Made by a program: the position numbers and the translations under genes
Shown here: one piece after another, positions 8,976 to 52,176 of the stretch
How positions within the stretch are numbered: the first letter of the stretch is position 1
How the letters are laid out: each line of letters starts with the position of its first letter
Notes under the pieces: generated by a model
What the model saw: the letters and a program-made list of their open reading frames with translations, nothing else
Database searches by the model: none
Told to the model about the DNA's origin: nothing
DNA from: Catellatospora methionotrophica
GTDB taxonomy: Bacteria; Actinomycetota; Actinomycetes; Mycobacteriales; Micromonosporaceae
DNA length: 64,000 bases
Direction: 5' to 3'
Assembly (NCBI RefSeq): GCF_011297335.1
Contig: NZ_JAAOTJ010000010.1
Location: forward strand, 1 to 64,000

Positions 8976-9042
8976 CATCGACGCTGGCCTATTACATCGA
9001 TTATTTTGAGCTCAAATTCGATGTAATAGGCCAGCGTCGATG
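8976..9042. repeat. Intergenic palindrome, family A copy 1
   Basis: Perfect 25-bp arms (8976-9000 and 9018-9042) carry the shared core GACGCTGGCCTAT plus TACATCGA. The 17-nt loop holds a second small palindrome, TTGAGCTCAA (9006-9015). It lies between the convergent recN and SMR genes and is followed by GCGAAGCGGG rather than T residues. The core recurs at 26377, 40122 and 52112. Confidence 0.95.
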
Positions 9043-9103
9043 CGAAGCGGGGGATTGGCGGGCGGGCGGGGCGGGTGGGGGTGTGGGTGTGGGGGGTGTC
9101 GGG

Positions 9104-9427
9104 TCAGTGTTGTTGGCCTAGTTCGAGGGCGACTACGCCGGCGGCGACGAGGGCCAGGCCGAGGACCTGGAGCCAGCTGAAGCGGTCCTGGAAGAAGACG
9201 ACGCCGGCCAGGGCGACCAGGGCGACGCCGATGCCCGCCCAGATGCCGTACGCCAGGCCGAGGGCCATGCCGCGCTTGAGCACCTGGCTCAATAGTGCGA
9301 ACGCGGTGATGTACCCCACGACCACCACGACGGACGGCAACACCTTGGTGAAGCCTGCGGACGCCCGCAGGCACACGGTCGCGACGACTTCGGCGAGGAT
9401 GGCTCCGGCGAGCATGAGGTAGATCAC
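9104..9427 (-). CDS. SMR-family multidrug efflux protein (Mmr/EmrE-like)
   Basis: This 107-residue inner-membrane protein with four transmembrane helices works as a dimeric proton/drug antiporter in its family. The essential membrane Glu is in the N-terminal helix (LAEVVATVCLRAS), and the GIWAGIGVALVAL helix-3 motif is present. GTG 9427 is chosen over GTG 9436 for two reasons: mycobacterial Mmr begins at the equivalent residue (MIYL...), and a -10 box lies 7 nt before 9427. The gene stands alone between convergent recN and divergent steA. Confidence 0.88.
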   Translation of the reverse strand: MIYLMLAGAILAEVVATVCLRASAGFTKVLPSVVVVVGYITAFALLSQVLKRGMALGLAYGIWAGIGVALVALAGVVFFQDRFSWLQVLGLALVAAGVVALELGQQH

Positions 9428-9434
9428 GAGGCTC

Positions 9435-9440
9435 ACTGTA
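9435..9440 (-). promoter_or_regulatory. -10 box of the SMR gene, leaderless
   Basis: TACAGT on the minus strand ends 7 nt before GTG 9427, with no ribosome binding site between. No convincing -35 box was found. Confidence 0.5.
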
Positions 9441-9588
9441 AGCGTCGATCTTGGAGGTCGGCGCGAGCGGCGCGATGCGGTTACCGTTGACGGCGCGCGA
9501 GGTTTCAGACATCACAATTCAGCCCGTATGGGCCGATCAAGGGGTGTCGTACGCGCCAATACCGGACTGACATGCCAGGATGGCTGCG

Positions 9589-10767
9589 ATGCGTCTTCCC
9601 ACCTTGCGCCGGACCCGGCCCGCCGAACCGGGGATCCTGACCGGCACCGCACGGCTCGACCGCCGGACCAAACGTCTGGTCGGCCGACTGCGCCCTGGCG
9701 AGATCGCCGTGATCGATCACGTCGACATCGACCGGGTCGCCGCCGACTCCCTGGTGGCCGTGGGGGTGGCGGCGGTGCTCAACGCCAAGCCCTCCATCTC
9801 GGGCCGCTACCCCAACCTAGGTCCCCAGGTGCTGGTCGAGGCCGGCATCACCCTGCTCGACGATCTCGGCGAGGGGGTGTTCCAGCAGATCCGCGAGGGC
9901 GACTCGGTCCGGGTCGAGGGCAACACCGTCTTCGTCCGCGGTGAGCCGGTGGCGCACGGGGTGCGCCAGGACGCCGACTCCATCTCCAAGGCCATGCTCG
10001 ACGCCCGCGAGGGTCTGTCGGTGCAGCTGGAGGCGTTCGCCGCGAACACCATGGAGTACCTCAAGCAGGAGCGGGAGCTGCTGCTCGACGGTGTCGGCGT
10101 GCCCGAGATCAAGACTCAGATCTCCGGCCGGCACTGCCTGATCGTGGTGCGCGGCTACGACTACAAGGCCGATCTCGACGTGCTGCGGCCCTACATCCGC
10201 GAGTTCAAGCCGGTGCTGATCGGTGTGGACGGTGGCGCGGACGCGCTGGTCGAGGCGGGCTACACGCCCGACATGATCATCGGTGACATGGACTCGGTGA
10301 CCGACGACGTGCTGCGCTGCGGTGCCGAGGTGGTCGTGCACGCCTATCCCGACGGCCGGGCTCCGGGTCTGGACCGGGTGCACCAGCTCGGTGTGTCGGG
10401 GATCACCTTCCCGGCGGCGGCGACGAGCGAGGACATCGCGATGCTGCTGGCCGACGAGAAGGGCGCGACCCTGATCGTGGCGGTCGGCACCCACGCGACG
10501 CTGGTCGAGTTTCTGGACAAGGGCCGCGGGGGCATGGCTTCGACGTTCCTCACCCGGCTGCGGGTGGGTGGCAAGCTCGTCGACGCCAAGGGTGTGAGCC
10601 GGCTCTACCGGCAGAGCATTTCAGGTTCCTCGTTGCTTTTGCTGGTATTGTCCGCCATCGCGGCTATGGCCGCGGCTGTCGCCGTGTCCACGGTCGGCAA
10701 GGCCTACCTGTCGCTGGCCGCGGAGTGGTGGGACGACGTGATGTTCCATCTGCAGCGGCTGTTCTAG
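9589..10767 (+). CDS. steA: SteA, septation-linked membrane protein
   Basis: The protein has 392 residues. SteA and SteB (Rv1697/Rv1698 in mycobacteria; cglmar_1603-type locus in corynebacteria) form a septal complex that affects cell separation. The N-terminal soluble region (LTGTARLDRRTKRLVGRLR) is followed by a thiamin-pyrophosphokinase-like fold with GVDGGADAL and IIGDMDSV. A single C-terminal membrane helix lies at about residues 345-370 (SSLLLLVLSAIAAMAAA). ATG 9589 (MRLPTLRR) has AGGA eight bases upstream; ATG 9580 is the alternative. steB follows after 27 bp. Confidence 0.9.
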   Translation: MRLPTLRRTRPAEPGILTGTARLDRRTKRLVGRLRPGEIAVIDHVDIDRVAADSLVAVGVAAVLNAKPSISGRYPNLGPQVLVEAGITLLDDLGEGVFQQIREGDSVRVEGNTVFVRGEPVAHGVRQDADSISKAMLDAREGLSVQLEAFAANTMEYLKQERELLLDGVGVPEIKTQISGRHCLIVVRGYDYKADLDVLRPYIREFKPVLIGVDGGADALVEAGYTPDMIIGDMDSVTDDVLRCGAEVVVHAYPDGRAPGLDRVHQLGVSGITFPAAATSEDIAMLLADEKGATLIVAVGTHATLVEFLDKGRGGMASTFLTRLRVGGKLVDAKGVSRLYRQSISGSSLLLLVLSAIAAMAAAVAVSTVGKAYLSLAAEWWDDVMFHLQRLF

Positions 10768-10794
10768 GAACCCGGACGATCAAGAGGCTCTGAC

Positions 10795-11724
10795 GTGATC
10801 AACTTTAGGTACCACGTGGTGTCCATGACGGCGGTGTTCCTCGCGCTGGCGATCGGGCTGGTCGTCGGCACCGCCGCGCTCAACGGCCCGGCGGCGGACG
10901 CCCTCGAGAAGAACGTCAACGCGCTGCGGGCGACCAACTCGCAGCTGCGTGACCAGGTCACCGGCCTGCGCGACCAGGCCAACCGCGAGGAGCAGTTCGT
11001 CACCGAGGCCGCGCCGATCCTGCTGAACGGCAAGCTCACCAACCGCCGGGTGCTGCTGCTGGTGCTGCCCTCGGGCCGCGACCAGGTCGAGGGCGTCGAG
11101 AACATCCTCAAGACCGCCGGAGCCAAGATCGCGGGCACCGTCGAGCTGACCGACAAGTTCTTCAACCCCGACAACAGCGTCGAACTGCTCGACCTGGAGA
11201 ACAAGGCCGAGCCGGCCAGCGTGCCGACCACGGCCATCCCGGCCAACAGCGACGGCGTCGAGTCGTCCAGCGCGCTGCTGGCCGCGGTGCTGCTGGACCG
11301 CAGCCCGGCCGTGCCCGCGCCGGACCGCGCCGCGGTGCTCGCCGCGTACAGCAAGCTCGGCTACCTGACCACCAGTGGGGCCGTGACCGGGCCCGCCGAG
11401 GCGGTCGTCCTGGTCAGCGGCTCGCCGTACACCGACAGCCAGGCTGCGGGCAAGAACGCCTCCGTGGTCACCACCGCGGTGCAGTTCGACCACGCCGGGG
11501 TCGCGGTCGTCGGCGGCGTGCTCGGCGGTGAGGGCAACCTCATGATCGAGGTACGCGACGACGCCACCCTCGCCAAGACCATCTCGACCGTCGACAACGC
11601 CGAGACGGTGCAGGGGCAGGTCGCCGCGGCGCTGGCGCTGTACGAGCAGTTCTCCGACAGCAAGGCGGGCCACTACGGCGTCGGGCCCAACGCCAGCGCG
11701 CTGCTGCCGCAGTTGCAGAAGTGA
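10795..11724 (+). CDS. steB: SteB / MctB-type protein
   Basis: This 309-residue protein is the partner of SteA. In M. tuberculosis the homologue is called MctB and has been linked to copper. It has one N-terminal membrane helix (TAVFLALAIGLVVGTAAL), then a coiled coil (EKNVNALRATNSQLRDQVTG) and an extracytoplasmic domain that ends in LLPQLQK. GTG 10795 gives MINFRYHVVS, the usual N terminus of the family. The next gene starts 6 bp downstream, so one operon is likely. Confidence 0.9.
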   Translation: MINFRYHVVSMTAVFLALAIGLVVGTAALNGPAADALEKNVNALRATNSQLRDQVTGLRDQANREEQFVTEAAPILLNGKLTNRRVLLLVLPSGRDQVEGVENILKTAGAKIAGTVELTDKFFNPDNSVELLDLENKAEPASVPTTAIPANSDGVESSSALLAAVLLDRSPAVPAPDRAAVLAAYSKLGYLTTSGAVTGPAEAVVLVSGSPYTDSQAAGKNASVVTTAVQFDHAGVAVVGGVLGGEGNLMIEVRDDATLAKTISTVDNAETVQGQVAAALALYEQFSDSKAGHYGVGPNASALLPQLQK

Positions 11725-11730
11725 GCTGAC

Positions 11731-13047
11731 GTGGGATTGCTCGCCAGAGCGGCACTGATCGGCCTGGGCGCTTACGGCGCCCGGGCCGCACTGCGTGTGG
11801 TGCGCGACCAGCCCCGGGCCAGGGAGTTGGAGCGCACGAACTTCAGGGGGCGCACGCTGACCCTGGCCGGCGGTCCCGCGCTGGCGGTCTCCGCGAGCGT
11901 CACCAGTGCCCTCGGCGCGGGTGACCCCCGTACGGCGGCCGCCGCGCTGGCGGCGGGACTGTCCGGCGGCGCGGTCGGGCTGTACGACGACGTGGTCGGC
12001 GCACGCCCCGACCAGAAGGCCGACAAGGGCTTCCGTGGACACCTGCGGGCGCTACGCGAAGGCCGCGTCACCAGCGGCCTGGTCAAGATCGCCGGAGTGG
12101 GCGCGGGTGCGCTCGCCGCTGCCGCGCTGCTGCCGAACCGCCACGAGCGGGGCAGGCTCGGCCGGGCGGCCGAGGTGGCGCTGGGCGCGGGCGTGATCGC
12201 GGGCAGTGCGAACCTGATGAACCTGTTCGACCTGCGCCCCGGCCGGGCGCTCAAGGTCGGTGTGCTGGTCGGCGCACCGCTGACCGCGACCCGTGCGGGC
12301 GGCCTGGCCGCCGGTCCGGTGGGCGCGAGCGTGGGCCTGCTGCCCGCCGACCTGGGTGAAGAGATCATGCTCGGCGACTCGGGCGCGAACGCGCTCGGCG
12401 CACTGCTCGGGGTCAGCGCGACCGCGCGCACCGGCCTGTTCGGCCGCGCCGTCCTGCTCGCGGGCATCGCCGCGCTGACCGCCGCCAGCGAGAAGGTCAG
12501 CTTCACCAAGGTCATCGAACGCACCCCGGTGCTCCGCGAGATCGACGCCTGGGGCCGCATCCCGGCTGCCAGGCCGACCGGTGGCACGCCGACCGGCATC
12601 ATCGCGGCGGCCAAGCCGACCGATCACACGCCGACCGGCATCATCGCGGCGGCCACGCCGACCGATCACACGCCGACCGGTGGCACGCCCAGCGGCCTGG
12701 GTCCGGATGAGACTGACCACAGTGGTACAGCGGACGTCGTTCCGGCTGACGGGCCCGGCGGCGGTGTCGTGCACTCGGCGATCGCGCCGCGACCGGCCGT
12801 GCGGGAGACCGCCGCGCCCTTGCCCTTGTTCACGGGCGGGACGGCGGGCGAGCCGATGACCCCCACTGGTGAGGAAGCCGTCAAACCGAAGACGGCCAGG
12901 AAGGCGGTCCGGGCTGTCCCGGCAGCCCCCGCTGACGAGGCGGCGACCGTCGCGGAGGCGGTGGAGGCCGAGCACGCCACGGATGCGGCCCCGGCCGCCG
13001 ACAAGCCGAAGCCACGAGCACGGGCGCCGCGCCGTACCGCTTCATGA
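11731..13047 (+). CDS. MraY/WecA-like membrane phosphotransferase with repeat tail
   Basis: This 438-residue protein belongs to the polyprenyl-phosphate phospho-sugar transferase superfamily. Aspartate motifs are visible: YDDVVG at about residue 87 and LGDSGANALG at about 214. Hydrophobic helices span residues 1 to about 270. MraY proper is about 360 residues and more conserved, so this is a divergent relative. The C-terminal third is disordered, with two 14-residue repeats (TPTGIIAAAKPTDH) followed by an Ala/Pro/Lys-rich stretch. Start GTG 11731 lies 6 bp after steB. The stop overlaps the murJ start (ATGA). A role starting a lipid-linked polymer is inference. Confidence 0.75.
   Translation: MGLLARAALIGLGAYGARAALRVVRDQPRARELERTNFRGRTLTLAGGPALAVSASVTSALGAGDPRTAAAALAAGLSGGAVGLYDDVVGARPDQKADKGFRGHLRALREGRVTSGLVKIAGVGAGALAAAALLPNRHERGRLGRAAEVALGAGVIAGSANLMNLFDLRPGRALKVGVLVGAPLTATRAGGLAAGPVGASVGLLPADLGEEIMLGDSGANALGALLGVSATARTGLFGRAVLLAGIAALTAASEKVSFTKVIERTPVLREIDAWGRIPAARPTGGTPTGIIAAAKPTDHTPTGIIAAATPTDHTPTGGTPSGLGPDETDHSGTADVVPADGPGGGVVHSAIAPRPAVRETAAPLPLFTGGTAGEPMTPTGEEAVKPKTARKAVRAVPAAPADEAATVAEAVEAEHATDAAPAADKPKPRARAPRRTAS
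12586..12680 (+). repeat. Two and a quarter 42-bp tandem repeats
   Basis: Units at 12586-12627 and 12628-12669 differ by a single base and are followed by a partial third copy. Each encodes TPTGIIAAA(K/T)PTDH in the cytoplasmic or periplasmic tail of the MraY-like protein. Confidence 0.9.
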
Positions 13048-14684
13048 CCGTGACCGCTGACGACAGGGCCTCGGTCGCCGCGGGGACCGGCCCGGCCGCG
13101 GCCCGGATCGCGGGCGCCGCGACGCTGATCGCGCTGCTGACCGTGCTGAGCCGGGTGGCCGGATTCGGCCGCACCCTGGTGTTCTCGCAGACCGTCGGCG
13201 ACGGCGGGCTCGGCGGCACGTACCTGGCCGTCAACACCATCCCCAACATCATCTTCGAGATCGTGGCAGGTGGGGCGCTGGCCGGGCTGGTCGTGCCGCT
13301 GCTGGCCGGGCCGCTGGCGGCCGGGGACCGCGAGCAGGTGCGCCGTACCGTGTCCGCGCTGCTGACCTGGGCGCTGGTGGCGCTGATCCCGCTGGCCGCG
13401 CTGCTGTGGCTGGCCGCCGACCCCGTGGTGACGCTGCTGCAGTCCACGGCGACCCCGGAGTTGCACGAGGCGGGCGTGTCGATGCTGCGGGTGTTCGCGC
13501 CGCAGGTGCCGCTGTACGGCATCGGCATCGTGCTCACCGGCGTGCTGCACGCCCACCGCCGGTTCGCCTGGCCGGTGCTCGCACCGCTGCTGTCCAGCCT
13601 GACCGTGATCGGCGCGTACCTGCTGTTCGCCGCGGAGGCCGGGTCCGATCCGCTGCCGGGCACGGTCAGCGCGGGTGAGCTGGCGATCCTGTCGGTCGGC
13701 ACCACCCTGGGCGTGGTCGTGCTGACCCTGTGCCTGATCGTACCGGTGAGCCGCCTGGGCCTGGGGCTGCGGCCGGTGTTGCGGGTCGAGCCCGCGCAGC
13801 GGCGGCGGATGAGCTCGCTGGCGCTGGCGGGCGCGGCCACCGTGGTGGCCCAGCAGGTCGCGCTGCTGGTCGCGATCATCCTGGCCGGGCGGGTCGTGCC
13901 GGCCGGGGACGCGGCGTCGGCCAACGCGCTCTACAACTTCGCGATGACGCTGTACCTGCTGCCCTGGGCGGTGCTCGCGGTGCCCGCCGCGACGGCCGCG
14001 TACCCGGCGATCGCGACCGCGTTCGCCACCGCCGACCACGGCGCGCTGCGGCTCACGGTCGCCCGGACGAGCCGCGCGGTGCTGCTGCTCAGCGGGCTCG
14101 GCGCGGCCGGGCTGGCCGCGGTCGCCGCGCCCGCGTCGGCGTTCCTGACCGAGGGCGAGGGCACCGGGGCGCTGACCACGGCCGTGCTGGCGTTCGCGCC
14201 CGGCCTGCTCGGCTACGGGCTGGCCGCCCTGCACCAGCGGACCCTGTATGCCGTGGGCGCGAACCGGCTCGCCGCACTCGGGGTCAGTGGCGGCTGGGCG
14301 GTCACCCTGGTCAGCGCGGTGATCCTGGCGGCGGTGCTGCCGGACGGGCAACGGGCGGCGGCGCTGGGCGCGGCGAACTCCCTCGGCATGATCGTGATGG
14401 CGGTGCTGCTGGCCGTGGCGGTCCGGGCCCGTACGGGTGGTAGCTCCCTGACCGGCCTGTTCCGTGCCGGGCTGGCCGCTTGCGCGGCGGGGCTGGCCGG
14501 TGCCGTGGCCGGGGTGGAGGCGGGCCGGGCGGTCGTCTCCGGGACCCCAGGCATCATGGGTCTGGTCGGACAGGGCATGCTGTCCGGTGGCGTGTCGCTC
14601 GTCGTCTTCCTGATCGTGTGTGCCCTGCTCGACCTGCCGGACCTGCGTCCGCTGCTCGAGCGGCTGAGCCGCCGACGCGGATGA
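13044..14684 (+). CDS. murJ: MurJ/MviN-family lipid II flippase homologue
   Basis: This 546-residue polytopic membrane protein of the MOP superfamily has about 14 predicted helices. The N-terminal motif SRVAGFGRTLVFSQ and the NTIPNIIFEIVAGGALAG block are typical of MurJ. In mycobacteria MurJ is fused to a pseudokinase domain, which is absent here. It starts by ATGA overlap with the MraY-like gene and ends by ATGA overlap with the glycosyltransferase, so the three should be made together. It might flip lipid II or a dedicated lipid-linked glycan; a second murJ elsewhere in the genome would favour the latter. Confidence 0.9.
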   Translation: MTVTADDRASVAAGTGPAAARIAGAATLIALLTVLSRVAGFGRTLVFSQTVGDGGLGGTYLAVNTIPNIIFEIVAGGALAGLVVPLLAGPLAAGDREQVRRTVSALLTWALVALIPLAALLWLAADPVVTLLQSTATPELHEAGVSMLRVFAPQVPLYGIGIVLTGVLHAHRRFAWPVLAPLLSSLTVIGAYLLFAAEAGSDPLPGTVSAGELAILSVGTTLGVVVLTLCLIVPVSRLGLGLRPVLRVEPAQRRRMSSLALAGAATVVAQQVALLVAIILAGRVVPAGDAASANALYNFAMTLYLLPWAVLAVPAATAAYPAIATAFATADHGALRLTVARTSRAVLLLSGLGAAGLAAVAAPASAFLTEGEGTGALTTAVLAFAPGLLGYGLAALHQRTLYAVGANRLAALGVSGGWAVTLVSAVILAAVLPDGQRAAALGAANSLGMIVMAVLLAVAVRARTGGSSLTGLFRAGLAACAAGLAGAVAGVEAGRAVVSGTPGIMGLVGQGMLSGGVSLVVFLIVCALLDLPDLRPLLERLSRRRG

Positions 14685-15844
14685 CCGGGCGGACGCGGCG
14701 GGCGAGGGCAGGAGGACCGTTGACCACGGGGACGGAATGGACCGGCAGCGTGGTGCTGCTGCTCGCCTCCAGCACGGGCGGCATCGGCCAGCATGTGGCC
14801 GCGCTGGCCGAGGGGCTTAGCCGGGCCGGGTGCGAGGTGACCGTCTGCGGTCCCGCCTCGACCGAGCAGCAGTTCCACTTCACCGACCGCGGCGCGCGCT
14901 TCCACCCCGTCGAGATCCCCGCCGAACTGCATCCCAGTGACATGCGGGCGGTACGCACACTGCGCGCGTTCCTGGCCGCCCAGCGCCCCGACGTCGTGCA
15001 CGCGCACGGCCTGCGCGCCGGGCTCGCCGCAGCGCTGTCCCGCCCGCCGTGCCCGCTCGTGACGACCTGGCACAACGCCCCGCTGCGAGCCGGGCTGCGC
15101 GGCCGGGTGCACACCCTGGTCGAGCGGATCGTGGCGCGGTCGTCCGCGGTCACCCTCGGCGCGTCCAGCGACCTGGTCGCGCGGGCACACGCGGTCGGCG
15201 CGAGCGACGCCCGGCTGGCCCCGGTGGCCGCCCCCCGACTGCGCCGCAGCCGCCGCACCAGGGCCGCCGTACGCGCCGGGCTCGGCCTGGCCGACAGCGT
15301 GCCGCTGGTGCTGTCCGTGGGGCGGCTGCACCCGCAGAAGGCGTACGACATGCTCGTGGCCGTCGCCGCCCGCTGGCGGGACATGTCCCCGGTGCCGCGG
15401 GTGCTGATCGCCGGCGAGGGCCCGGCCTACCTCGACCTCGCCGCCCAGATCTCGCAGCTGCGGGCCCCGGTCACCCTGCTCGGGCACCGCACCGACATCG
15501 GCGACCTGATCGCCGCCGCCGACCTGGGCGTGGTCACCAGCGTCTGGGAGGCGCGCCAGCTGTTCGCGCAGGAGGCGCTCACCGGGGGACTGCCGCTGGT
15601 CGCCACCTCCGTCGGCGGCATCCCCGAACTGGTCGGCGACGGCGCGCACCTGATCGAGCCGAGCGACCCCGACGGGCTGGACAGCGCGGTGCGCAAGCTG
15701 CTCGGCGACGGGCAGGCGCGGGCCCGGCTCGGCGAGCGCGGCCAGACCCAGGCCGCCACCTGGCCCGACGAGCAGGCCAGCATCGACGGCGTGCGCGCCG
15801 TGTACGCCGAGCTGGCCGCCCCGAACCGTGCGGAGCTCCCCTGA
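14681..15844 (+). CDS. GT4-family glycosyltransferase
   Basis: This 387-residue protein has the GT-B fold. The N-terminal donor/acceptor motif is STGGIGQHVAALAEGL. The C-terminal half carries LSVGRLHPQKAYDMLV and the retaining GT4 signature E-x7-E (EARQLFAQE) followed by GLPLVATSVGGIPELV. It is probably cytoplasmic or membrane-peripheral and uses a nucleotide sugar. ATG 14681 overlaps the murJ stop; TTG 14720, after GGAGGA, is a less likely alternative start because the spacing is only about four bases. The sugar is unknown. Confidence 0.85.
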   Translation: MTGRTRRARAGGPLTTGTEWTGSVVLLLASSTGGIGQHVAALAEGLSRAGCEVTVCGPASTEQQFHFTDRGARFHPVEIPAELHPSDMRAVRTLRAFLAAQRPDVVHAHGLRAGLAAALSRPPCPLVTTWHNAPLRAGLRGRVHTLVERIVARSSAVTLGASSDLVARAHAVGASDARLAPVAAPRLRRSRRTRAAVRAGLGLADSVPLVLSVGRLHPQKAYDMLVAVAARWRDMSPVPRVLIAGEGPAYLDLAAQISQLRAPVTLLGHRTDIGDLIAAADLGVVTSVWEARQLFAQEALTGGLPLVATSVGGIPELVGDGAHLIEPSDPDGLDSAVRKLLGDGQARARLGERGQTQAATWPDEQASIDGVRAVYAELAAPNRAELP

Positions 15845-18165
15845 TGCTCCGTCGGCCGGTTCCCCTCCCCACGGCCCTCCTGTTGACCCTGCTGGCGCTG
15901 CTCGGCCTCGCCGTGCCGCTGGCCGGGACGCTGTTCGCGGCGCCCGCGGCGGCGGCCGGGCCGGTCGAGGACGACGAGGCCGACTACGTGGTCATCGCCG
16001 GTGCGGCCGGGCTGCGCTGGGACGACATCGACGCCGACCGGACCCCGAACCTGTGGAAGCTGGCCGAGCGCGGCTCGATCGGCTCGCTGTCGACCCGGTC
16101 CGCGCATACGCCCACCTGCCCGGCCGACGGCTGGCTGACCCTGGGCGCGGGCAACCTGGCCGAGCGGACCGGCGTCGGCGAGAAGCCCGCCGACGGGCAG
16201 GTAGAGCCCAACCCCGACCTGCCCGTGCAGTGCGAGAAGCTGGACGTGGCGATCGAGCGCCCGGACGCGGTCGGGGCGTACCTGCCCGACCAGGAGGCGG
16301 TCGTGGAGCGCCAGCGCGAGCTGCCGTACGGCACCGTGCCCGGGGCGCTGGCCGAGTCGGTGCGCTGCACGACCGCGGTCGGTGAGGGCGCGGCGGTCGC
16401 GGCGGCGCGCTCGTTCGGCCGGGTCGACCGGTACCACCCCGCGCTGCCCGCGGCGAAGGAGGCGAAGAAGGCGCTCAGCGAGTGCCTGCTCACCATCGTC
16501 GACCTGGGTGCGATCGACGGGCGCACCCCGGCGCAGCGGCTGCGCCAGGCGGCCGCCGCCGACAAGCAGCTCGGCCAGCTGCTCGCGGCCCGCCCGAAGA
16601 ACTCGACGCTGCTGGTCGCCGGGGTCGCCGACACCGAGGCCAGTTCCCGGCTGCACGCGGTCATCGCCGACGGCAAGGGCTGGGAGGGCGGCTACCTGAC
16701 GTCGGCGTCCACCGGCCGCGCCGGATACCTGCAGCTGGTCGACCTGGCGCCGACGGCGCTGAACCTGCTGGGCCGCGACGTGCCCAAGCGGATCATGGTC
16801 GGTCACCCGGCGGTGCTGACCGACGGGCGCCCGGCCGACCTGGACCAGGCGACCGCCGCGGGCACCGACGCCGACCGGCGCGCGGCCGCCTCGCGTACCG
16901 TGTCGGCCTGGTTCTTCTGGCTGCTGGCGCTGGTGCAGATCGGCCTGTTCACGGCCGTGGTGCCGCTACTGCGGCGCAGTTACCGCCATGCCGGGCCGAC
17001 GGGGCCCAGCTCGCCCCCACCGCGCCTGGTGAGCCTGCTGGAGGTGCTGCTGACCGGGGCCTCGCTGGCGCTGCCCGCCGCGCTGATCGCCGGGGTGGTG
17101 CCGTGGTGGCGCTTCGGCCGCCGCGGACTGATCTTCGGCCTGGTCACGGCCGGTATCACCCTGGTCCTCACCGTCGTCACGGTCCGGCTGCCGGTGTACC
17201 GCAGACGCACCCTCGGCCCGGTCGGCGTGGTCGCCGCGATCGCCGCCGCCGTCGTCGGCATCGACCTGATCACCGGCGCGCGGCTGCAGCTCAACGGCGT
17301 GGCCGGGTACTCGGTGCTGGAAGGCACCCGGTATGCGGGCATCGGCATGGTCGGCATGGGCGTGTTCTTCGCCGGGGTGCTGCTGACCGCCGGCACGCTG
17401 GCCCAGCTCGTGCCGCAGCGCAACCGCCCGGGCCTGGTCGCCGCGATCGGCGCGGCCGGCGTGCTGCTGGTCGGCATCCCCGCGCTCGGCGCGGACGCGG
17501 GCGGCGCGGTCGCGCTGACCGCGGGGGTATGCCTGACCGCCGCGCTGTGCCCCGGCGGCTGGCTCACCTTCCGGCGGCTCGCCCTGGCCATGCTCGCCGG
17601 GCTGGCCGCGACCGTGGTGTTCGCGCTGATCGACGTACGCCAGCCGGTGGACCAGCAGGGCAGTCTGGGCCGTTTCCTCACCCAGCTCTCCGACGGCACC
17701 TCCGGCCCGACCCTGGCCCGCCTCGGCGGCGCGAACCGGATCGCGCTGTTCACCAGCCCGCTGACCGTGCTGGCACTGGTCTCGGCGGTGTTCCTGTGGG
17801 TGGTGCTGATGCGCCCGTGGGGCGGCCTGAAGCGGCTGTACGGCATCTACCCGCCCATCCGGGCGGCGGTGGCCGGGCTGTGGCTCGCCTCGATCGTGGG
17901 TGGCCTGCTGGGCGGCGCGGCCCTCAACGTGATGGGCGCGGCGGCCGCCACGGCGGTCCCGATCCTCACGCTGGGCGCGATGCGGGTGCTCGGCCACGCC
18001 GCGGACCGCACCCGGATCTCCGAGGACACGCCTACCGCTCCCGCGACGATGGGCGACGACCCGGCCGCGACCCAGCCCCCGGCCCTGCGGGTCGCCACGC
18101 CGGAGGCGGCGTCGTCGCCCGCGCCGGTGAGCGGCGACACCCCCGAAGCGGTTTCGGGGCCGTAG
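15844..18165 (+). CDS. Alkaline-phosphatase-fold domain fused to polytopic membrane domain
   Basis: The protein has 773 residues. A signal/anchor helix (residues about 8-32, LLTLLALLGLAVPLAGTLFA) precedes an extracytoplasmic region. That region looks like an alkaline-phosphatase-superfamily domain: VVIAGAAGLRWDDI, then TPNLWKLAERGSIGSLS and SAHTPTCPADGWLTLGAGN. From about residue 355 there are about ten membrane helices, and a short disordered tail. The stop of the GT gene overlaps this start (TGATG). The domain is of the type that hydrolyses or transfers phospho-alcohols, so polymer modification at the septum is possible. I do not know a characterised homologue, and the metal ligands cannot be assigned with confidence. 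Confidence 0.7.
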   Translation: MLRRPVPLPTALLLTLLALLGLAVPLAGTLFAAPAAAAGPVEDDEADYVVIAGAAGLRWDDIDADRTPNLWKLAERGSIGSLSTRSAHTPTCPADGWLTLGAGNLAERTGVGEKPADGQVEPNPDLPVQCEKLDVAIERPDAVGAYLPDQEAVVERQRELPYGTVPGALAESVRCTTAVGEGAAVAAARSFGRVDRYHPALPAAKEAKKALSECLLTIVDLGAIDGRTPAQRLRQAAAADKQLGQLLAARPKNSTLLVAGVADTEASSRLHAVIADGKGWEGGYLTSASTGRAGYLQLVDLAPTALNLLGRDVPKRIMVGHPAVLTDGRPADLDQATAAGTDADRRAAASRTVSAWFFWLLALVQIGLFTAVVPLLRRSYRHAGPTGPSSPPPRLVSLLEVLLTGASLALPAALIAGVVPWWRFGRRGLIFGLVTAGITLVLTVVTVRLPVYRRRTLGPVGVVAAIAAAVVGIDLITGARLQLNGVAGYSVLEGTRYAGIGMVGMGVFFAGVLLTAGTLAQLVPQRNRPGLVAAIGAAGVLLVGIPALGADAGGAVALTAGVCLTAALCPGGWLTFRRLALAMLAGLAATVVFALIDVRQPVDQQGSLGRFLTQLSDGTSGPTLARLGGANRIALFTSPLTVLALVSAVFLWVVLMRPWGGLKRLYGIYPPIRAAVAGLWLASIVGGLLGGAALNVMGAAAATAVPILTLGAMRVLGHAADRTRISEDTPTAPATMGDDPAATQPPALRVATPEAASSPAPVSGDTPEAVSGP

Positions 18166-18191
18166 CCCGCAGGTGAACGCGGGACCCGTGT

Positions 18192-18197
18192 TAGGGT
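18192..18197 (+). promoter_or_regulatory. -10 box of pyrG, leaderless
   Basis: TAGGGT is followed by 8 nt and the GTG start of pyrG. No matching -35 box was recognised. A CCCCGAA/TTCGGGG hairpin (18141-18159) at the 3' end of the previous gene could terminate upstream transcription. Confidence 0.45.
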
Positions 18198-18199
18198 GA

Positions 18200-19909
<1,710 letters not shown>

Positions 19910-19932
19910 CCCGGCCGGACAACCGAACAACC

Positions 19933-19965
19933 ACGCTGGTCGCAGGCACTGCCTGCGGCCAGCGT
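19933..19965 (+). terminator. Strong hairpin between pyrG and the NUDIX gene
   Basis: ACGCTGG + T + CGCAGGC pairs with GCCTGCG + G + CCAGCGT: 15 pairs with one T-G wobble and a three-base loop. CGTCTT follows. It ends 13 bp before the AGGAG ribosome binding site of the next gene, so it could terminate or attenuate read-through from pyrG. Confidence 0.75.
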
Positions 19966-19988
19966 CGTCTTGCAGGACAGGAGATCGT

Positions 19989-20579
19989 GTGTACGAGGTC
20001 GTCGGCAGCACCGAGCGGTTCAAGGGGCACATCTTCCGGGTCGTCACCGATCGGGTGACGATGCCCGGGGGAGAGGTCGCGGGGCGGGACGTGGTACGCC
20101 ACGTCGGCGCGGTCGGGGTCGTCGCACTGGACGAGCAGGGCCGCGTGGTGCTGGTCCGCCAGTACCGGCACCCGGTCGGCCGCTACCTGTGGGAGCTGCC
20201 CGCCGGCCTGATCGACGTGCAGGGCGAGGGCCTGGCCGCCGCGGCGCTGCGCGAGCTGGCCGAGGAGGCCGACCTGACCGCGGGCCGCGTCGACCTGCTG
20301 GTGGACATGTTCACCACCCCCGGCTGCTCGGACGAGATGATCCGGGTCTTCCTGGCCCGCGACCTGGCCGAGATCCCGCAGCACGAGCGGCACGTGCGCA
20401 CCGAGGAGGAGGCCGACATGACGGTCGACCGGGTCCCCCTCGACGAGGCGCTGGCCATGGTCTTCGACGGCCGGATCAGCAACGGACCCGCCGTCGGAGG
20501 GCTGCTCGCCGCCGCTCGCGCCCGTGACACGGACTTCAAGGACCTCCGTCCCGCCGACGCGCCCCTGCCACCCCGGTGA
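19989..20579 (+). CDS. NUDIX hydrolase, ADP-ribose pyrophosphatase type
   Basis: The protein has 196 residues. Family members cleave ADP-ribose to AMP and ribose-5-phosphate. The N-terminal strand pair is followed by VRQYRHPVGRYLWELPAG and the NUDIX helix ALRELAEEADL. It corresponds in position to M. tuberculosis Rv1700. GTG 19989 is chosen because AGGAG lies at 19979-19983. In many relatives xerD follows; here the next gene is ald. Confidence 0.9.
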   Translation: MYEVVGSTERFKGHIFRVVTDRVTMPGGEVAGRDVVRHVGAVGVVALDEQGRVVLVRQYRHPVGRYLWELPAGLIDVQGEGLAAAALRELAEEADLTAGRVDLLVDMFTTPGCSDEMIRVFLARDLAEIPQHERHVRTEEEADMTVDRVPLDEALAMVFDGRISNGPAVGGLLAAARARDTDFKDLRPADAPLPPR

Positions 20580-20653
20580 GGGCTGGGCGGTAAGAGGCAA
20601 TTATCCGATTCAGCACTATCCTTGGTGGTACCGCAGGGCGGTGGGGTGCCGTG

Positions 20654-20700
20654 TTGACACCATGTCAAGTCGAGCAGTCATCGGCTGTCATCCTGTCAGG
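20654..20700 (+). promoter_or_regulatory. Candidate operator upstream of ald
   Basis: TTGACA-CCA-TGTCAA (20654-20668) is a perfect inverted repeat. Two more TGTCA half sites follow at 20686 and 20695. The first TTGACA could also act as a -35 box, but no good -10 box stands 17 bp away. Mycobacterial ald is controlled by the Lrp-type regulator AldR; whether that applies here is inference. Confidence 0.4.
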
Positions 20701-20807
20701 CACTGGGGCCTGTTTTCCGGGCCTAGACTGCCGCCGCGGGGGGTAGACCAGCGGCAACGGCGCCGTTCGGCCCCCTCGCACAGCGCAGGATCGAGGAAGG
20801 TGCAGTC

Positions 20808-21920
20808 GTGAAGGTCGGTATCCCCCGCGAGGTCAAGAACCACGAGTACCGGGTGGCGATCACCCCGGCGGGCGTACACGAGTTCGTCCGCAACGGACAC
20901 GACGTCGTCATCGAGACCGGCGCCGGGCTCGGCTCGTCCATCACCGACGCGGAGTACGTCGCCGCCGGTGCGACCATCCTGTCCACCGCGGACGAGGTGT
21001 GGGCCGGTGCCGAGCTGATCCTCAAGGTCAAGGAGCCCATCGCCGAGGAGTACCACCGGATGCGCGAGGGGCAGGTGCTGTTCACCTACCTGCACCTGGC
21101 CGCGTCCAAGGAGTGCACCGACGCGCTGATGACCCAGAAGGTCACCGGCATCGCGTACGAGACGGTGGAGACCGCCGACCGCGCCCTGCCGCTGCTGGCC
21201 CCGATGAGCGAGGTGGCCGGACGGCTCGCCCCGCAGGTCGGCGCGTACCACCTGATGCGTTTCGCGGGCGGCCGGGGCGTGCTGCCCGGCGGCGTGCCCG
21301 GCGTGCGCCCGGCCAAGGCCGTCGTCATCGGCGCGGGCGTGTCCGGCATGAACGCCGCCACCATCGCCCACGGCCTGGCCTTCGAGGTCACCGTCCTGGA
21401 CAAGAACATCAAGAAGCTGCGCGAGGTCGACCAGCAGTTCCACGGCCAGGTCCGCACGGTCATGTCGAACGCGTTCGAGCTGGAGCAGGCGGTGCTGGAG
21501 GCCGACCTGGTCGTCGGCGCGGTCCTGGTGCCCGGCGCGAAGGCCCCGACGCTGATCAGCAACGAGCTGGTGAGCCGGATGAAGCCGGGCAGCGTGCTCG
21601 TCGACATCTCGATCGACCAGGGCGGCTGCTTCGAGGACTCGCACCCGACCACGCACGCCAACCCGGTCTACAAGGTGCACGAGTCGATCTTCTACTGCGT
21701 GGCGAACATGCCCGGCGCGGTCCCGCACACCAGCACCTACGCGCTGACCAACGTGACCCTGCCGTACGCCGTCGAGCTGGCCAACTACGGCTGGCAGGAG
21801 GCGCTGCGCCGCGACCCCGCCCTGAAGCTGGGCCTGAACACCCACGCGGGCGAGATCACCTACGGCCCGGTGGCCGAGGCGCACGGCCTCACCGCCGTGG
21901 ACGTCGACTCGCTGCTCTGA
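20808..21920 (+). CDS. ald: Alanine dehydrogenase
   Basis: This 370-residue NAD-dependent enzyme interconverts L-alanine and pyruvate plus ammonia. The N terminus [20 protein letters not shown] is the family signature, the Rossmann motif is [13 protein letters not shown], and the substrate-binding Lys (ILKVKEP) and His (YLHLAAS) are present. GTG 20808 follows GAGGAAGG with normal spacing. The gene has a 228-bp upstream region with repeated TGTCA motifs, so it is probably regulated on its own. Confidence 0.96.
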
Positions 21921-21933
21921 GCAGTGCTTTCCT

Positions 21934-21965
21934 GATGCCGGTGGCGCTGGAGCGTCACCGGCATC
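21934..21965 (+). terminator. ald terminator hairpin
   Basis: GATGCCGGTG pairs perfectly with CACCGGCATC, and the interior adds a few pairs. It starts 13 bp after the ald stop. Confidence 0.7.
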
Positions 21966-22164
21966 ATGCTGTTCACAGCGCGCGCCCGCCCGGTCCGGCC
22001 GGTCTGCGTAAGACACGCCGAGCCGTGGCGGCACACCGGCGTGGTCGGTGACGTACAGTCGGACGACGACGACGACACCAGGCGGCCGGTCGGGGAGCTG
22101 GCGGTCCACCCACGACGGTGCCTCATCCGGCCGGTCGGATGTCGTCGGGAAGGGCGTAGCGGAG

Positions 22165-23094: not shown

Positions 23095-23102
23095 CCTCGG
23101 CC

Positions 23103-23120
23103 CACCGGCGTGCGCCGGTG
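23103..23120 (+). terminator. Small hairpin between parA-like gene and scpA
   Basis: CACCGGC-GTGC-GCCGGTG starts 9 bp after the stop and lies just ahead of the scpA -10 box. It is short and may only weakly terminate. Confidence 0.45.
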
Positions 23121-23134
23121 AACTGAGCTGCTGG

Positions 23135-23140
23135 GATACT
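23135..23140 (+). promoter_or_regulatory. -10 box of scpA, leaderless
   Basis: GATACT (one mismatch to TATACT) is followed by 6 nt and the GTG start of scpA, with no ribosome binding site. Confidence 0.45.
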
Positions 23141-23146
23141 GGCGAC

Positions 23147-26352: not shown

Positions 26353-26376
26353 CCGCCGCTCCGCCCCGCGCCGTCA

Positions 26377-26441
26377 ATAGACGTTGGCCTATCTGGATGA
26401 GTTCGATCCGCAAAAAGTGATCCAGATAGGCCAACGTCTAT
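26377..26441. repeat. Intergenic palindrome, family A copy 2
   Basis: Perfect 22-bp arms (26377-26398 and 26420-26441) have the core ATAGACGTTGGCCTAT and the inner part CTGGAT. Compared with other copies, C-to-T in the left arm is matched by G-to-A in the right arm, and the inner arm differs on both sides. It lies between two genes on the same strand and is followed by GCAAAACGGG, as at 40122. Confidence 0.95.
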
Positions 26442-26546
26442 GCAAAACGGGTCGTTGGCGCGGCGCGCGCCGGGGTGGGGCAGGGGCTGAGGGTCGGTGG
26501 GTAGGGTGGGCGGGACCGTTGACCGTTTACCGCTGGGAGCCGCTCG

Positions 26547-32110: not shown

Positions 32111-32179
32111 CGATGATCGCTGTTTCGTGTCAAAACCTCGGGTTAGACCGCAGGTTCTGACCCGAAACAGCGATCATCG
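32111..32179. repeat. Intergenic palindrome, family B
   Basis: 28-nt arms (32111-32138 and 32152-32179) have two mismatches and outer sequence CGATGATCGCTGTTTCG. It differs from family A in sequence but has the same size and the same type of location. It lies 14 bp after der and could terminate der transcripts; no T tract follows. Confidence 0.9.
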
Positions 32180-40083: not shown

Positions 40084-40121
40084 CCCACCCCGCTCGACGG
40101 GTGCGGCCCGACCCCGTTTGT

Positions 40122-40188
40122 CATAGACGCTGGCCTATTACATCGACTCAGACGAGATCAAACTCGATGTAATAGGCCAGTGTCTATG
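40122..40188. repeat. Intergenic palindrome, family A copy 3
   Basis: 25-bp arms (40122-40146 and 40164-40188) match the copy at 8976 in core and inner TACATCGA. One G-T wobble is present. It lies between convergent genes and is followed by CAAAAGCGGG. Confidence 0.95.
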
Positions 40189-40237
40189 CAAAAGCGGGTC
40201 GCGGACGTGCCGCGCACGGGGCGAGTCGTGGGAGTGG

Positions 40238-44045: not shown

Positions 44046-44046
44046 C

Positions 44047-45057: not shown

Positions 45058-45079
45058 CGCGATGAGCACCGGCCGACAC

Positions 45080-45114: not shown

Positions 45115-45123
45115 GGCAAGGGA

Positions 45124-49870: not shown

Positions 49871-49888
49871 CTCCTGTGAGTTATGGCA

Positions 49889-49936
49889 AGGAAGGGCACC
49901 TTCCCATCGCTATCCGTACCGCAAGGGCACCTTGTC
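49889..49936. repeat. Two AAGGGCACCTT palindromes upstream of the Stealth gene
   Basis: AGGAAGGGCACCTTCCCATCGC (49889-49910) is identical to part of scpB (24340-24361). A second palindrome, CAAGGGCACCTTG, follows at 49922-49934. They lie in the 121-bp divergent gap and could act on either gene. Confidence 0.8.
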
Positions 49937-49991
49937 AACGCCGTCCGGGGGCGGCCGCAGGCCGGTGGCGGGGTGGTGGGAGGGTGGGGGC

Positions 49992-50810
49992 GTGCTGGAC
50001 GCGTCAGAGGTGGCCGAGGTCGAGCGGGCAGTGCGCCGCGTCGCCGAGGAGCAGATCCTGCCCAGGTTCGGCCGCCTCACCGCGGCCGACATCGCCTTCA
50101 AGACCTCCGAGACCGACTACGTCACCGTCGCGGACCGGGCCGCCGAGGAGGAGCTGGCCAAACACCTGACCGCCGCCGTCCCCGGCTCGATCATGGTCGG
50201 TGAGGAGGCCGTCGCCGCCGACCCCTCGCTGCTGGCCGCGATCAACGGCGACGCCCCGGTGTGGATCGTCGACCCGATCGACGGCACCCACAACTTCGTC
50301 AGCGGCAGCCCCCGGTTCACCACCCTGGTCGCGCTCGCCCACCGCGGCCGCCTGCTGGCCTCCTGGACGTACGCCCCGGTGCTCGACCTGATGGCGGTCG
50401 CCACCGCGGGCGGCGGGGCGTACGTCGACGGCCAGCGCGTCCGGGTGCGCCCCGTCGAGCCGGTGCTGCGCCACCTCGACGTCAGCGTGTCCCCGCCGAT
50501 CTGGTGGAAACCCGCGCAGCGCGACGGCTTCCACCGGCTCAGCGCGCGCGGCGTGGCGCTGTCCTTCTTCGACACCTCCGGGCTGGAGTACATCCAGCTC
50601 GCCAGCGGGCGGCGCACCGCCATGGTGCTCACCTGGGAACTGCCCTGGGACCACGCCGCCGGGCTGCTGCTGCACGCCGAGGCGGGAGGCGTCGCCCTGG
50701 CCGCCGACGGCAGCCCGGTCCGCATCGGCGGCGGCAACGCCCTGCCGTTCCTCGTCGCCCCCGACCCCGAAACCGCCCGCCTCGTCCTCTCCGCCCTCAA
50801 CCCCACCTGA
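49992..50810 (+). CDS. Inositol-monophosphatase-family phosphatase
   Basis: The protein has 272 residues. Metal motifs are GEEAVA, DPIDGTHNF (about 95) and WELPWDHAAGLLLHAEAGG. Members hydrolyse inositol phosphate, histidinol phosphate or PAP; the substrate is not evident. GTG 49992 is preferred to in-frame ATG 49932, which lies within the palindromic upstream DNA; GAGGGT lies 6 nt before it and could be a degenerate -10 box. Confidence 0.88.
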   Translation: MLDASEVAEVERAVRRVAEEQILPRFGRLTAADIAFKTSETDYVTVADRAAEEELAKHLTAAVPGSIMVGEEAVAADPSLLAAINGDAPVWIVDPIDGTHNFVSGSPRFTTLVALAHRGRLLASWTYAPVLDLMAVATAGGGAYVDGQRVRVRPVEPVLRHLDVSVSPPIWWKPAQRDGFHRLSARGVALSFFDTSGLEYIQLASGRRTAMVLTWELPWDHAAGLLLHAEAGGVALAADGSPVRIGGGNALPFLVAPDPETARLVLSALNPT

Positions 50811-50868
50811 CCCGAGCGCCCGCGTCCTCCGGTTCGGGGTTCTGCGGCCGCGCCGAGCCCGGGCCGGG

Positions 50869-52039
50869 TCAGCGGGCCGTGAGGGCGGCGGTGATCAGGC
50901 CGATGGTGGTCCAGTCGACGTCGGGGTCGGTCAGCAGGGCGGCGTAGGTGGTGAACTCCAGGGTGGTGGACTCGCCGTCGGCGGTGACGCCGTGCGACTG
51001 CGGGCCCGTCTCCAGCGCGGCCAGTTCCGCCTCGGTCAGTTGCACGCTGAACAGGTGGATCCGGTGCGCGGACACGGTCGCCGCGGGCTGGCGTACGCCG
51101 TGGGAGTGCAGGCGTGCCGGGTCCACGTGCAGGCCCGTCTCCTCAGCCAGTTCCGCGAGGGCGGTCTGCCGTGGGTCGGCTGTGCCGGGCTGGGAACCGC
51201 CGGGCAGTTCGTGTACGTAGCCGTCGGTGGTCACGGCGCTGGATCGGAACTCGCGTACCAGCACGATCCGGGTCTGCGCCAAGGTATCGCCGGGCAGGTA
51301 GGCGAGCACCGCGCTCACGTCGGGCCGCCCGAGCACCACCTCGTTGTCCTTGACGCGCCCCTCGGCGGCGATCTCGACGCCGACGTGGGCCGCCCACCAG
51401 AACGGTCGCTGGTCCCCGCCCGGCCACGTCCAGACGACCCGGGCCGAGCGCAGCCGGTTGCCCGCCGACTCCTGCGCGCTCAGCCAGGTGCGTACGGTCT
51501 GGTCCTGCCACAGTGGCAGGGGCAGCTCGCGGTGCGTTCCCGACCGGGTGCTCCCGCCGCGCAGCAGCGCCAGACCGGCGGCGAGTACGCCGTCGAGGGT
51601 GTCCGCGACGGGTGCGCCGTGCAGCCGGGCATAGTGCGCCAGGTATCGCATGCCGGGGGCGTCTGCGGGCGCGCCGAGCACGACCCGGCCGCTGGACTCC
51701 CAGCGGCCCCACTCGACGTTCGTCGTGAAGCCGGGCAGTGTGGCGAGGTCACGGGGCACCCAGAACACGACCGTGTCGGAACAGGTGCAGGCAGGCGTCC
51801 TCCCATCGCACCTGGTCCAGCCAGCCGTGCGGCATACCGCCCTCGGGCCGCTCGGGCACGAACACGACCAGGCGGCCGGGACCCTTCCACTGCGTCTGGA
51901 GCTTCTCCACGGCCTGCGGCCGCCAGGACGCGACGTCGGGCGAGCGCGGGGTCGGCCCGGCGAGGAACAGGGCCGCCGCCCAGGAGTCCGGGGGCGGGTC
52001 GCCTGCGTACACGGGGATGACCTCGCGCGTGATCTCCAT
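50869..52039 (-). pseudogene. Nucleoside 2-deoxyribosyltransferase-like / NUDIX fusion, frameshifted
   Basis: From ATG 52039 the protein reads MEITREVIPVYAGDPPPDSW ... ALFLAGPTPRSPDVASWRPQ ... WEDACLHL, the start of a nucleoside 2-deoxyribosyltransferase-like domain. The continuation, SDTVVFWVPRDLATLPGFTT, lies in another frame. Deleting one A from AA at 51780-51781 (plus strand) restores HLSDTVVFWVPRD. The rest (to 50869) carries a NUDIX box (TALAELAEETGL) and a C-terminal NUDIX fold. Known fusions of this type are thought to remove modified nucleotides. Here the gene is either broken or misassembled. Confidence 0.8.
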
Positions 52040-52111
52040 GCCGGTGATCGTCCCACGGTCCACAGTGGCCGTGCCCTGCCGCCCGGCTCCCGCTCCGCCC
52101 CACCGGTTTTA

Positions 52112-52176
52112 ATAGACGCTGGCCTATCTCATCGAAAATAAGGAGGTCAAATTCGATGAGATAGGCCAGCGTCTAT
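52112..52176. repeat. Intergenic palindrome, family A copy 4
   Basis: Perfect 25-bp arms (52112-52136 and 52152-52176) carry ATAGACGCTGGCCTAT and inner CTCATCGAA. It lies between divergent genes, so it cannot simply be a terminator for them. Confidence 0.95.

What the first reader, a model, noticed from the sequence alone, without database searches (positions are those of the whole stretch)
8976..52176. Four copies of a long covarying intergenic palindrome (family A)
Copies at 8976-9042, 26377-26441, 40122-40188 and 52112-52176 share the core ATAGACGYTGGCCTAT in each arm (the first copy has TCGACG in place of TAGACG). Arms are 22-25 bp and nearly perfect. Differences between copies are compensated: GACGT/ACGTC replaces GACGC/GCGTC, and the inner parts TACATCGA, CTGGAT and CTCATCGA each keep their own partner. 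Loops differ in sequence, while arms are preserved as pairs. They sit in convergent, co-directional and divergent gaps, so a plain terminator role does not explain them all. Selection on a hairpin, or spread of a small palindromic mobile element, fits.
Basis: seen in the sequence. Interest (0 to 1): 0.78.

Follow-up and report, generated by a model that had tools for sequence, protein, structure and literature searches.

The report
Genus-wide covarying 3'-end hairpin repeats
The four long palindromes belong to a large family of about 65-base hairpin repeats scattered just after genes in one bacterial genus; they look like small spreading DNA elements that also occupy the places where transcripts end, and some transposons are found inserted in their loops.

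Summary
The four palindromes are real: inverted conserved cores at a fixed 57-bp span, a variable inner stem that stays paired, a partly conserved loop. The genome holds 115 copies; all 11 genomes of the genus have copies (3-135), against 0 of 90 and, in an overlapping survey, 1 chance-like match in 239 others. Copies lie mostly just behind genes, above all between convergent ones. Two other families of like size (C, D) do the same. At orthologous convergent gaps, species of different clades usually carry different families (44 of 55); within clades mostly the same (43 of 64). No REP transposase (RAYT) accompanies them. Four IS30-type transposon lineages are each tied to one hairpin family (15 of 15 copies; both arms seen for 12). 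Best reading: a REPIN-like, non-autonomous palindromic repeat that spread within the genus and is kept, or tolerated, as a two-sided 3'-end hairpin. Mobility is inferred from presence/absence; the mover is unknown and no clean target duplication was seen. Termination is untested and the U-tract is missing. Strand-specific evidence for an RNA role was sought and not found. New variant of a known kind.

The parts
8976..9042 (.). family A copy 1, perfect 25-bp arms, inner block TTACATCGA type; convergent gap between genes ending 8893 (+) and 9436-9104 (-)
   Evidence: G005 has a family A copy in the orthologous gap, G001 a family C and G008 a family D hairpin
26377..26441 (.). family A copy 2, 22 bp of perfect arms, CTGGATGA type; co-directional gap, 24 nt after the stop of the gene ending at 26352
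   Evidence: the five relatives with an alignable gap have no long hairpin there
40122..40188 (.). family A copy 3, 25-bp arms with one non-Watson-Crick position, TTACATCGA type; convergent gap between a ThrE-like gene and a DUF3516 helicase gene
   Evidence: relatives carry hairpins of other families in the orthologous gap
52112..52176 (.). family A copy 4, perfect 25-bp arms, CTCATCGA type; divergent gap
   Evidence: no long hairpin at the orthologous gap in the nine relatives that could be aligned
40109..40201 (.). copy 3 with its outer flanks CCCCGTTTG / CAAAAGCGGG, an example of the flank consensus CCCCGYTTTn / nAAARCGGGG
32111..32179 (.). a copy of a second hairpin family (C: about GATCNNNGTYTCGTGTC in each arm, 61-bp core), recognised by reading its sequence
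   Evidence: family pattern

Best explanation
The palindromes are copies of a REPIN-like repeat: two inverted conserved cores at a fixed distance, joined by an inner stem and loop that vary but keep folding. In the genomes searched the family is confined to this genus; it spread by a mechanism not identified here and apparently not by a resident RAYT. Copies persist where a two-sided hairpin does no harm or some good: mostly 11-77 nt behind stop codons and above all between convergent genes, where several unrelated hairpin families of about the same size replace one another over evolution. I infer that in RNA from either strand the 25-bp stem marks or protects the transcript's 3' end (an I-shaped, U-less terminator or an exonuclease barrier). 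Pairing is kept partly by arm-to-arm correction through template switching, which would also explain inverted loops. Shown: anatomy, number, distribution, context, turnover, and IS30 insertions into the loops. Inferred: mobility, 3'-end role, correction mechanism.
For: 115 copies in G000 with 0 for the reversed control pattern; 11 of 11 genus genomes and 0 of 90 others; in a 250-genome family survey (50 of its genomes shared's others) 11 of 11 against 1 of 239 others, that one a 3-mismatch match without a palindrome. Lone cores are rare: 80 of 84 arm hits are paired; of the other four, three have a mismatched partner and one is split by a transposon. Inner block 92.7% paired against 56.1% in shuffles (maximum 67.3% of 500) with up to 3 pair types per position. 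Context in 2,072 kb of syntenic sequence: A 34 convergent, 17 co-directional (17 of 17 nearer the upstream stop, median 39 nt), 1 divergent, against 142, 485 and 225 gaps of these types. Between clades 44 of 55 convergent gaps occupied in both species hold different families; within clades 21 of 64. Copies missing from, or substituted in, relatives. Loops inverted between orthologues at two sites.
Against: No clean empty site with a target duplication was found; near-empty sites differ by more than the element. No mobilising enzyme identified. Sense-strand G-T versus A-C mismatches are not significantly different (A co-directional 33 vs 20, sign test p 0.39; G000 alone 8 vs 7). In convergent gaps occupancy is close to independent between clades (P 0.65 vs 0.53), so mere filling of a permissive niche is not excluded. 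Family B does not share the placement: 4 convergent, 3 co-directional, 4 divergent. In G005 the inner block is only slightly better paired than shuffles (88.8% vs 83.1%, maximum 88.3%). Core invariance is partly built in, because copies were found by their core.
Confidence: 0.58

Rival explanations
1. They are host-made bidirectional transcription terminators first and foremost; sequence families arise by gene conversion among copies, not by transposition.
For: Position behind stops and in convergent gaps; family replacement at the same gaps between clades; for co-directional gaps, occupancy in one clade raises it in the other (0.23 vs 0.05, on 10 doubly occupied cases). U-lacking structured 3' ends and bidirectional ends with long stems are reported for Streptomyces clavuligerus (PMC8269248, passages seen; its bidirectional ends have short loops, unlike these).
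Against: No U-tract: T-rich before and A-rich after the hairpin on either strand. Confined to one genus in the surveys, with 3-135 copies per genome; sites differ between species. A near-invariant core is not needed for termination.
Confidence: 0.25
2. They are DNA binding sites (supercoiling, nucleoid or topoisomerase sites) placed between convergent genes.
For: Conserved core blocks at a fixed spacing, convergent enrichment. REPs and BIMEs are said to bind several proteins (start of the abstract of PMC2817692, search listing).
Against: A plain duplex site does not need a loop or a covarying inner stem; several unrelated families occupy the same gaps.
Confidence: 0.07
3. They are miniature transposons (MITEs) of a cut-and-paste (DDE) transposase, for example an IS30 relative.
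For: IS30 lineages are tied to single hairpin families.
Against: The G002 IS30 element has its own inverted ends, unlike the arms by eye, and sits in the loop as an insertion with 3-base repeats at its sides; G000, G005, G009 and G010, which hold 71-135 A copies, have no match to this IS30 protein at E 1e-30.
Confidence: 0.05
4. Uptake-signal-like motifs that happen to be paired as terminators.
For: Conserved core in inverted pairs behind genes.
Against: Lone cores are almost absent (4 of 84 arm hits lack a regular partner), whereas uptake signals occur mostly singly (recalled, not from a call).
Confidence: 0.01

Closest known systems
REPINs (REP doublets forming hairpins) of Pseudomonas fluorescens SBW25, PMC3116915 (start of abstract in a listing; passages)
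   Same: two inverted invariant 16-mers at a fixed distance, variable spacer with compensatory changes, extragenic, several families per genome, lone halves look like remnants
   Different: no linked RAYT gene found; an actinobacterial genus; IS30 insertions in the loop
GTAG- and CGTC-tagged REPs, PMC3733652 (abstract, section 6 and passages seen)
   Same: intergenic, mostly between convergent and co-directional genes, often as inverted dimers; CGTC REPs also lack a dedicated transposase
   Different: no unpaired tag with an 8-9 bp stem; the CGTC here is inside the paired arm; the words Actinobacteria, Micromonospora, Streptomyces and Frankia do not occur in that paper's main text
I-shaped or bidirectional terminators of GC-rich bacteria, PMC8269248 (passages seen)
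   Same: long stable stems without U-tract at transcript ends, some used on both strands
   Different: no evidence of termination here; a sequence family with a conserved core; longer loop
IS elements that target REPs, PMC1525189 (passages seen)
   Same: IS lineage specific for a palindromic repeat
   Different: the families that paper counts as REP-targeting are IS3, IS110, IS4, IS256 and IS5 (its table also lists IS1655, an IS30-type element as I recall, at 2 of 13 and 2 of 6 copies); here IS30-type lineages are matched to different hairpin families
IS30 of E. coli, PMC9333248 (passages seen)
   Same: prefers nearly palindromic hot spots or its own ends as targets
   Different: here whole lineages are found in loops of repeat families

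Membership tests
REPIN | inverted doublet of a conserved core at fixed spacing | tested here: met
   57-bp core span in 115 copies; 80 of 84 arm hits paired
REPIN | spacer variable but able to pair, with compensatory changes | tested here: met
   inner block 92.7% paired vs 56.1% shuffled in G000; weaker in G005, 88.8% vs 83.1%
REPIN | associated RAYT (Y1 transposase) gene with the repeats beside it | tested here: not met
   PF01797 in 6 of 11 genomes only, no match in G008 and G009 which hold 126 and 135 copies; no exact A, C or D core in any of the 9 Y1 loci, about 1.5 kb each side
REPIN | movement (excision or new insertions) observed | tested here: inconclusive
   presence/absence between species but no precise empty site
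CGTC-tagged REP | unpaired CGTC end followed by an 8-9 bp stem | tested here: not met
   CGTC is paired inside the arm
canonical intrinsic terminator | hairpin followed by a U-tract | tested here: not met
   flank consensus of 56 copies is A-rich after the hairpin; the scans list nothing at the four copies but only allow loops of 3-8, so they are uninformative
I-shaped or bidirectional terminator | transcript ends at the hairpin | not testable with these tools
   position only
MITE of a DDE transposase | target-site duplication and ends shared with an autonomous element | tested here: inconclusive
   no duplication recognised by eye; the G002 IS30 has different ends; other transposases were not searched
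Rfam family | score above gathering cut-off | tested here: not met
   only 5S rRNA in the window

The most novel reading that the evidence does not exclude
A RAYT-independent ecology of hairpin elements: several unrelated families of about 65-bp palindromes copy themselves around one genus by an undescribed route, serve interchangeably as two-sided transcript ends, displace one another in convergent gaps as clades diverge, and are in turn parasitised by IS30 transposons, each lineage tied to the loop of one family.
Probability: 0.3. Interest if true: 0.8.

Novelty: new variant of a known kind. Interest (0 to 1): 0.56.

Why it matters
The REPIN paper seen here links these repeats to co-evolution with RAYT transposases (PMC3116915, passages). 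A copy-rich, covarying, genus-restricted set of palindrome families without a RAYT asks how such repeats multiply, and gives a comparative system (11 genomes, hundreds of copies, shared and species-specific sites). Family replacement at orthologous convergent gaps makes the question of whether REP-like repeats act as transcript ends testable. IS30 lineages matched to hairpin families offer a natural series for working out how these transposases choose targets.

Tried and rejected
RNA-strand test: a first count that included orthologous copies gave 110 G-T against 55 A-C on the sense strand in co-directional gaps, but also 51 against 86 on an arbitrary strand in convergent gaps. With 20-nt-context deduplication (orthologues of other species still included) and 60 more loci nothing was significant: A co-directional 33 vs 20 (p 0.39), C 51 vs 36 (p 1.0), D 15 vs 5 (p 0.39). 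I do not use it. Insertion of the element into the loop of an older GC-rich hairpin was suggested by single loci (L052, L027, L046), but flank complementarity equals that of mismatched flanks. RAYT or Y1 transposase as the mover: rejected. Uptake-signal reading: rejected. Closely spaced A copies (L298, L303, L296, L292) enclose called genes or, in L298, a 334-aa frame; none of these was put to a family search. Beside a conserved A-like copy (L352-L354) I read a protein that resembles inositol-phosphate synthase from memory, and saw no obvious transposase; no family search was run there. Naming the organism: near records are left out of the named collection; the first-listed named match is Rhizocola hellebori at 81%, so only the family Micromonosporaceae is inferred. 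Long-loop hairpins are rarer in other genera: 26 in 1,635 kb of 80 named loci against 156 in 2,072 kb of this genus. The terminator scans cannot see loops longer than 8.

Literature on such repeats in this group: the listings of the searches showed none; this is not proof of absence, and only listed titles, starts of abstracts or passages were seen.
Full report
OBSERVATION. The four palindromes lie where stated. All four are among the first five inverted repeats that the repeat finder lists for the window, and the core TAGACGYTGGCCTAT is found only as four inverted pairs, 8 hits against 0.78 expected. My gene calls, a codon-usage finder trained on the window, put them in a convergent, a co-directional, a convergent and a divergent gap. 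Rfam has no family for them at the gathering cut-off: only a 5S rRNA scores in the window.

NUMBER AND RANGE. The paired core (ACGY TGGCCTAT, 33 free bases, ATAGGCCA RCGT, up to 3 mismatches) occurs 115 times in the window's genome and 0 times for the reversed control (the listing itself shows only the first places). In 101 genomes it is present in 11 of 11 of the genus, 3 to 135 copies, and in 0 of 90 others. In a survey of 250 genomes of the family with a slightly looser pattern it is present in 11 of 11 of the genus and in 1 of 239 others; that match has 3 mismatches and no palindrome, and the reversed control also gave single hits in two other genomes (50 of the 239 were already). Lone arms are rare: 80 of 84 exact arm hits in 2,072 kb are paired; of the other four, three have a mismatched partner and one is split by a transposon (for the split copy).

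ANATOMY. In 114 copies taken from the listing, the blocks GACG, TGGCCTAT and GA are nearly fixed in G000 and G005 and less so in G002; one position covaries (C-G, T-A, rarely A-T), and a six-base block inside varies but stays mostly paired. Caveat: copies were found through their core, and the G000 rows used there had no mismatch, so core invariance is partly selection; the inner block is not part of the first search pattern. In 65 distinct copies of G000, 93.9% of 25 positions are Watson-Crick pairs (shuffled arms 81.3%, maximum 84.4%); for seven inner pairs 92.7% against 56.1% (maximum 67.3% of 500 shuffles). In 28 copies of G005 the contrast is weaker (88.8% against 83.1%, maximum 88.3%) because the copies are more alike. 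The flanks of 56 copies share CCCCGYTTTn before and nAAARCGGGG after the hairpin, the opposite of the A-before, T-after order of a canonical terminator. The terminator scan lists nothing at the four copies, but it only allows loops of 3-8, so that is uninformative. Flanks further out are no more complementary within a locus than between loci.

CONTEXT. Of 51 distinct copies from 11 genomes, 24 are convergent, 22 co-directional and 5 divergent; one overlaps the end of a called gene by about 2 nt. Of the 22 co-directional copies 19 are nearer the upstream stop than the downstream start, and 20 lie 11-77 nt behind that stop. In three syntenic regions of 8 to 11 genomes (2,072 kb) there are 142 convergent, 485 co-directional and 225 divergent gaps of at least 90 bp; family A falls in 34, 17 and 1 of them (52 of 54 copies), and in the co-directional gaps 17 of 17 are nearer the upstream stop (median 39 nt against 101). 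Families C (22, 32, 3; 27 of 32 co-directional nearer the stop; 3 inside called genes) and D (17, 17, 2; 15 of 17; 2 inside) behave much alike; family B does not (4, 3, 4). These counts include orthologous copies. Within one genome, G000, 38 of 67 copies are convergent, 25 co-directional, 4 divergent; G005: 18, 10, 0 of 28.

OTHER FAMILIES AND TURNOVER. The gap of window copy 3 shows the pattern: G002, G003, G005, G006 and G010 have a family B hairpin there, G001 and G007 two of family C, G008 and G009 family D, and G004 a family E hairpin visible in the sequence though below the threshold. Fixed-length patterns for C (61 bp) and D (60 bp) are likewise found only in the genus (11 of 11, 0 of 50 others each), with copy numbers unlike those of A: C is 250 and 240 in G001 and G007, where A has 3 copies each; D is 270, 194 and 179 in G009, G008 and G004. 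For orthologous gaps compared between clades, both species have some hairpin in 55 convergent cases and in 44 of these the families differ; one only in 47; none in 16. Within clades both are occupied in 64, with the same family in 43 and a different one in 21. Between clades P(occupied given the other is occupied) is 0.65 against 0.53 in convergent gaps, so these fill nearly independently; in co-directional gaps it is 0.23 against 0.05, more than chance filling, though on 10 cases; in divergent gaps 0 of 18 (genome pairs are not independent).

GAIN, LOSS AND PAIRING. Some A sites are old (one is occupied in 9 of 11 genomes), others were found in one species only (gaps whose flanks could not be aligned are marked there as not available). 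Orthologous copies keep the core while the inner block changes, often on both sides: over 68 genome pairs in 11 within-clade groups (10 sites; cross-clade rows and one tandem copy left out), 190 positions changed on both sides and stay paired, 191 are paired in one genome only, 19 in neither (inherited changes count repeatedly). Loops match better in the same orientation in 53 pairs and as reverse complement in 12; the clear cases are two sites (X9k G010, Y42k G005), as expected if arms exchange or template switching occurs. Near-empty sites exist but with altered flanks, so no target duplication can be read. A test for RNA function, more G-T than A-C mismatches on the sense strand, is negative: 33 against 20 in 62 co-directional A copies, sign test p 0.39; G000 8 against 7.

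MOVER. A Y1 (RAYT-like) transposase family matches in only 6 of 11 genomes, in three of them broken or partial, and not in G008 and G009, which hold 126 and 135 A copies; none of the nine Y1 loci has an exact A, C or D core within about 1.5 kb. I found no other candidate, and did not search other transposase families genome-wide.

TRANSPOSONS IN THE LOOPS. Comparing G010 with G002 showed two A copies of G002 split in the loop by a 1,179-bp element whose protein is an IS30 transposase (NF033563, E 7e-74; Pfam HTH_38 and rve). Of 22 match rows in the genus: 4 of 4 copies of this element are in A loops (3-base repeats GGC, GTC and GTA at the sides of three of them), 3 of 3 of a G008 lineage (53% identical) are in A loops, 3 of 3 of another G008 lineage (82% identical) in D loops, and 5 of 5 of a second G002 lineage (57%) abut an arm of family E (both arms seen in two; for the other three only one side was seen, one with a one-base variant). 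Of 4 G007 copies 2 lie in GC-rich hairpins and 2 do not clearly; 3 rows of G003 were not resolved. In an alignment of four of these proteins (the 53% lineage was not recovered) the two most similar ones, with different targets, differ most in their N-terminal part, which fits the reported role of that region in IS30 target binding (passage in PMC1525189). G000, the window's genome, has no match to this protein at E 1e-30, so these elements exploit the hairpins rather than explain them.

CONCLUSION. What is shown is a set of hairpin families, found only in this genus in the surveys made, of fixed length and covarying, at gene 3' ends, with turnover between families and family-matched IS30 insertions. 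The closest known thing is the REPIN (PMC3116915; inverted 16-mers, fixed distance, compensatory spacer changes, passages), but the linked RAYT is missing, so I call these REPIN-like and do not file them as REPINs. Spread is inferred from distribution, and a 3'-end function from position; both need the experiments listed.

Noticed in passing
L270, L274, L278, L282 (G002); L284, L285, L287, L271, L275, L279 (G008); L286, L288-L291 (G002): IS30-type transposons sit in or against A, D and E hairpins, each lineage in one family.
   Followed up: partly
L352, L353, L354 (near 2,700-2,840): An A-like hairpin (CGATGGCCTATCTAC...) behind a gene that resembles inositol-phosphate synthase (from memory) is conserved with its loop and flanks between clades, unlike other copies; possibly a conserved terminator or RNA.
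   Followed up: partly
G004 region 1 near 34010 (joined from L099-L102) and G008 region 1 near 33727 (joined from L072-L075): A longer palindrome (about 129-146 bp, ends GATCATGAAC...GTTCATGATC) is present in G004 and G008 and absent from the orthologous G009 gap.
   Followed up: no
L113, L125, L132, L135, L137, L162: Other actinobacterial genera also carry single 60-70 bp or shorter palindromes with long loops, of unrelated sequence; possibly families of their own.
   Followed up: no
G010 C4 near 581599 (L194, about 12,000-12,100): A stretch beside an A copy (GTCTATGAAAAACGGGTCA) is tandemly duplicated, including the outer end of the arm.
   Followed up: no
window 9000-9027, minus strand: The single promoter-like match of the scan of 8800-27000 lies inside copy 1 (9 of 12, expected 0.4 by chance); probably chance.
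   Followed up: no
window 9-125: 5S rRNA gene at the window's start.
   Followed up: no
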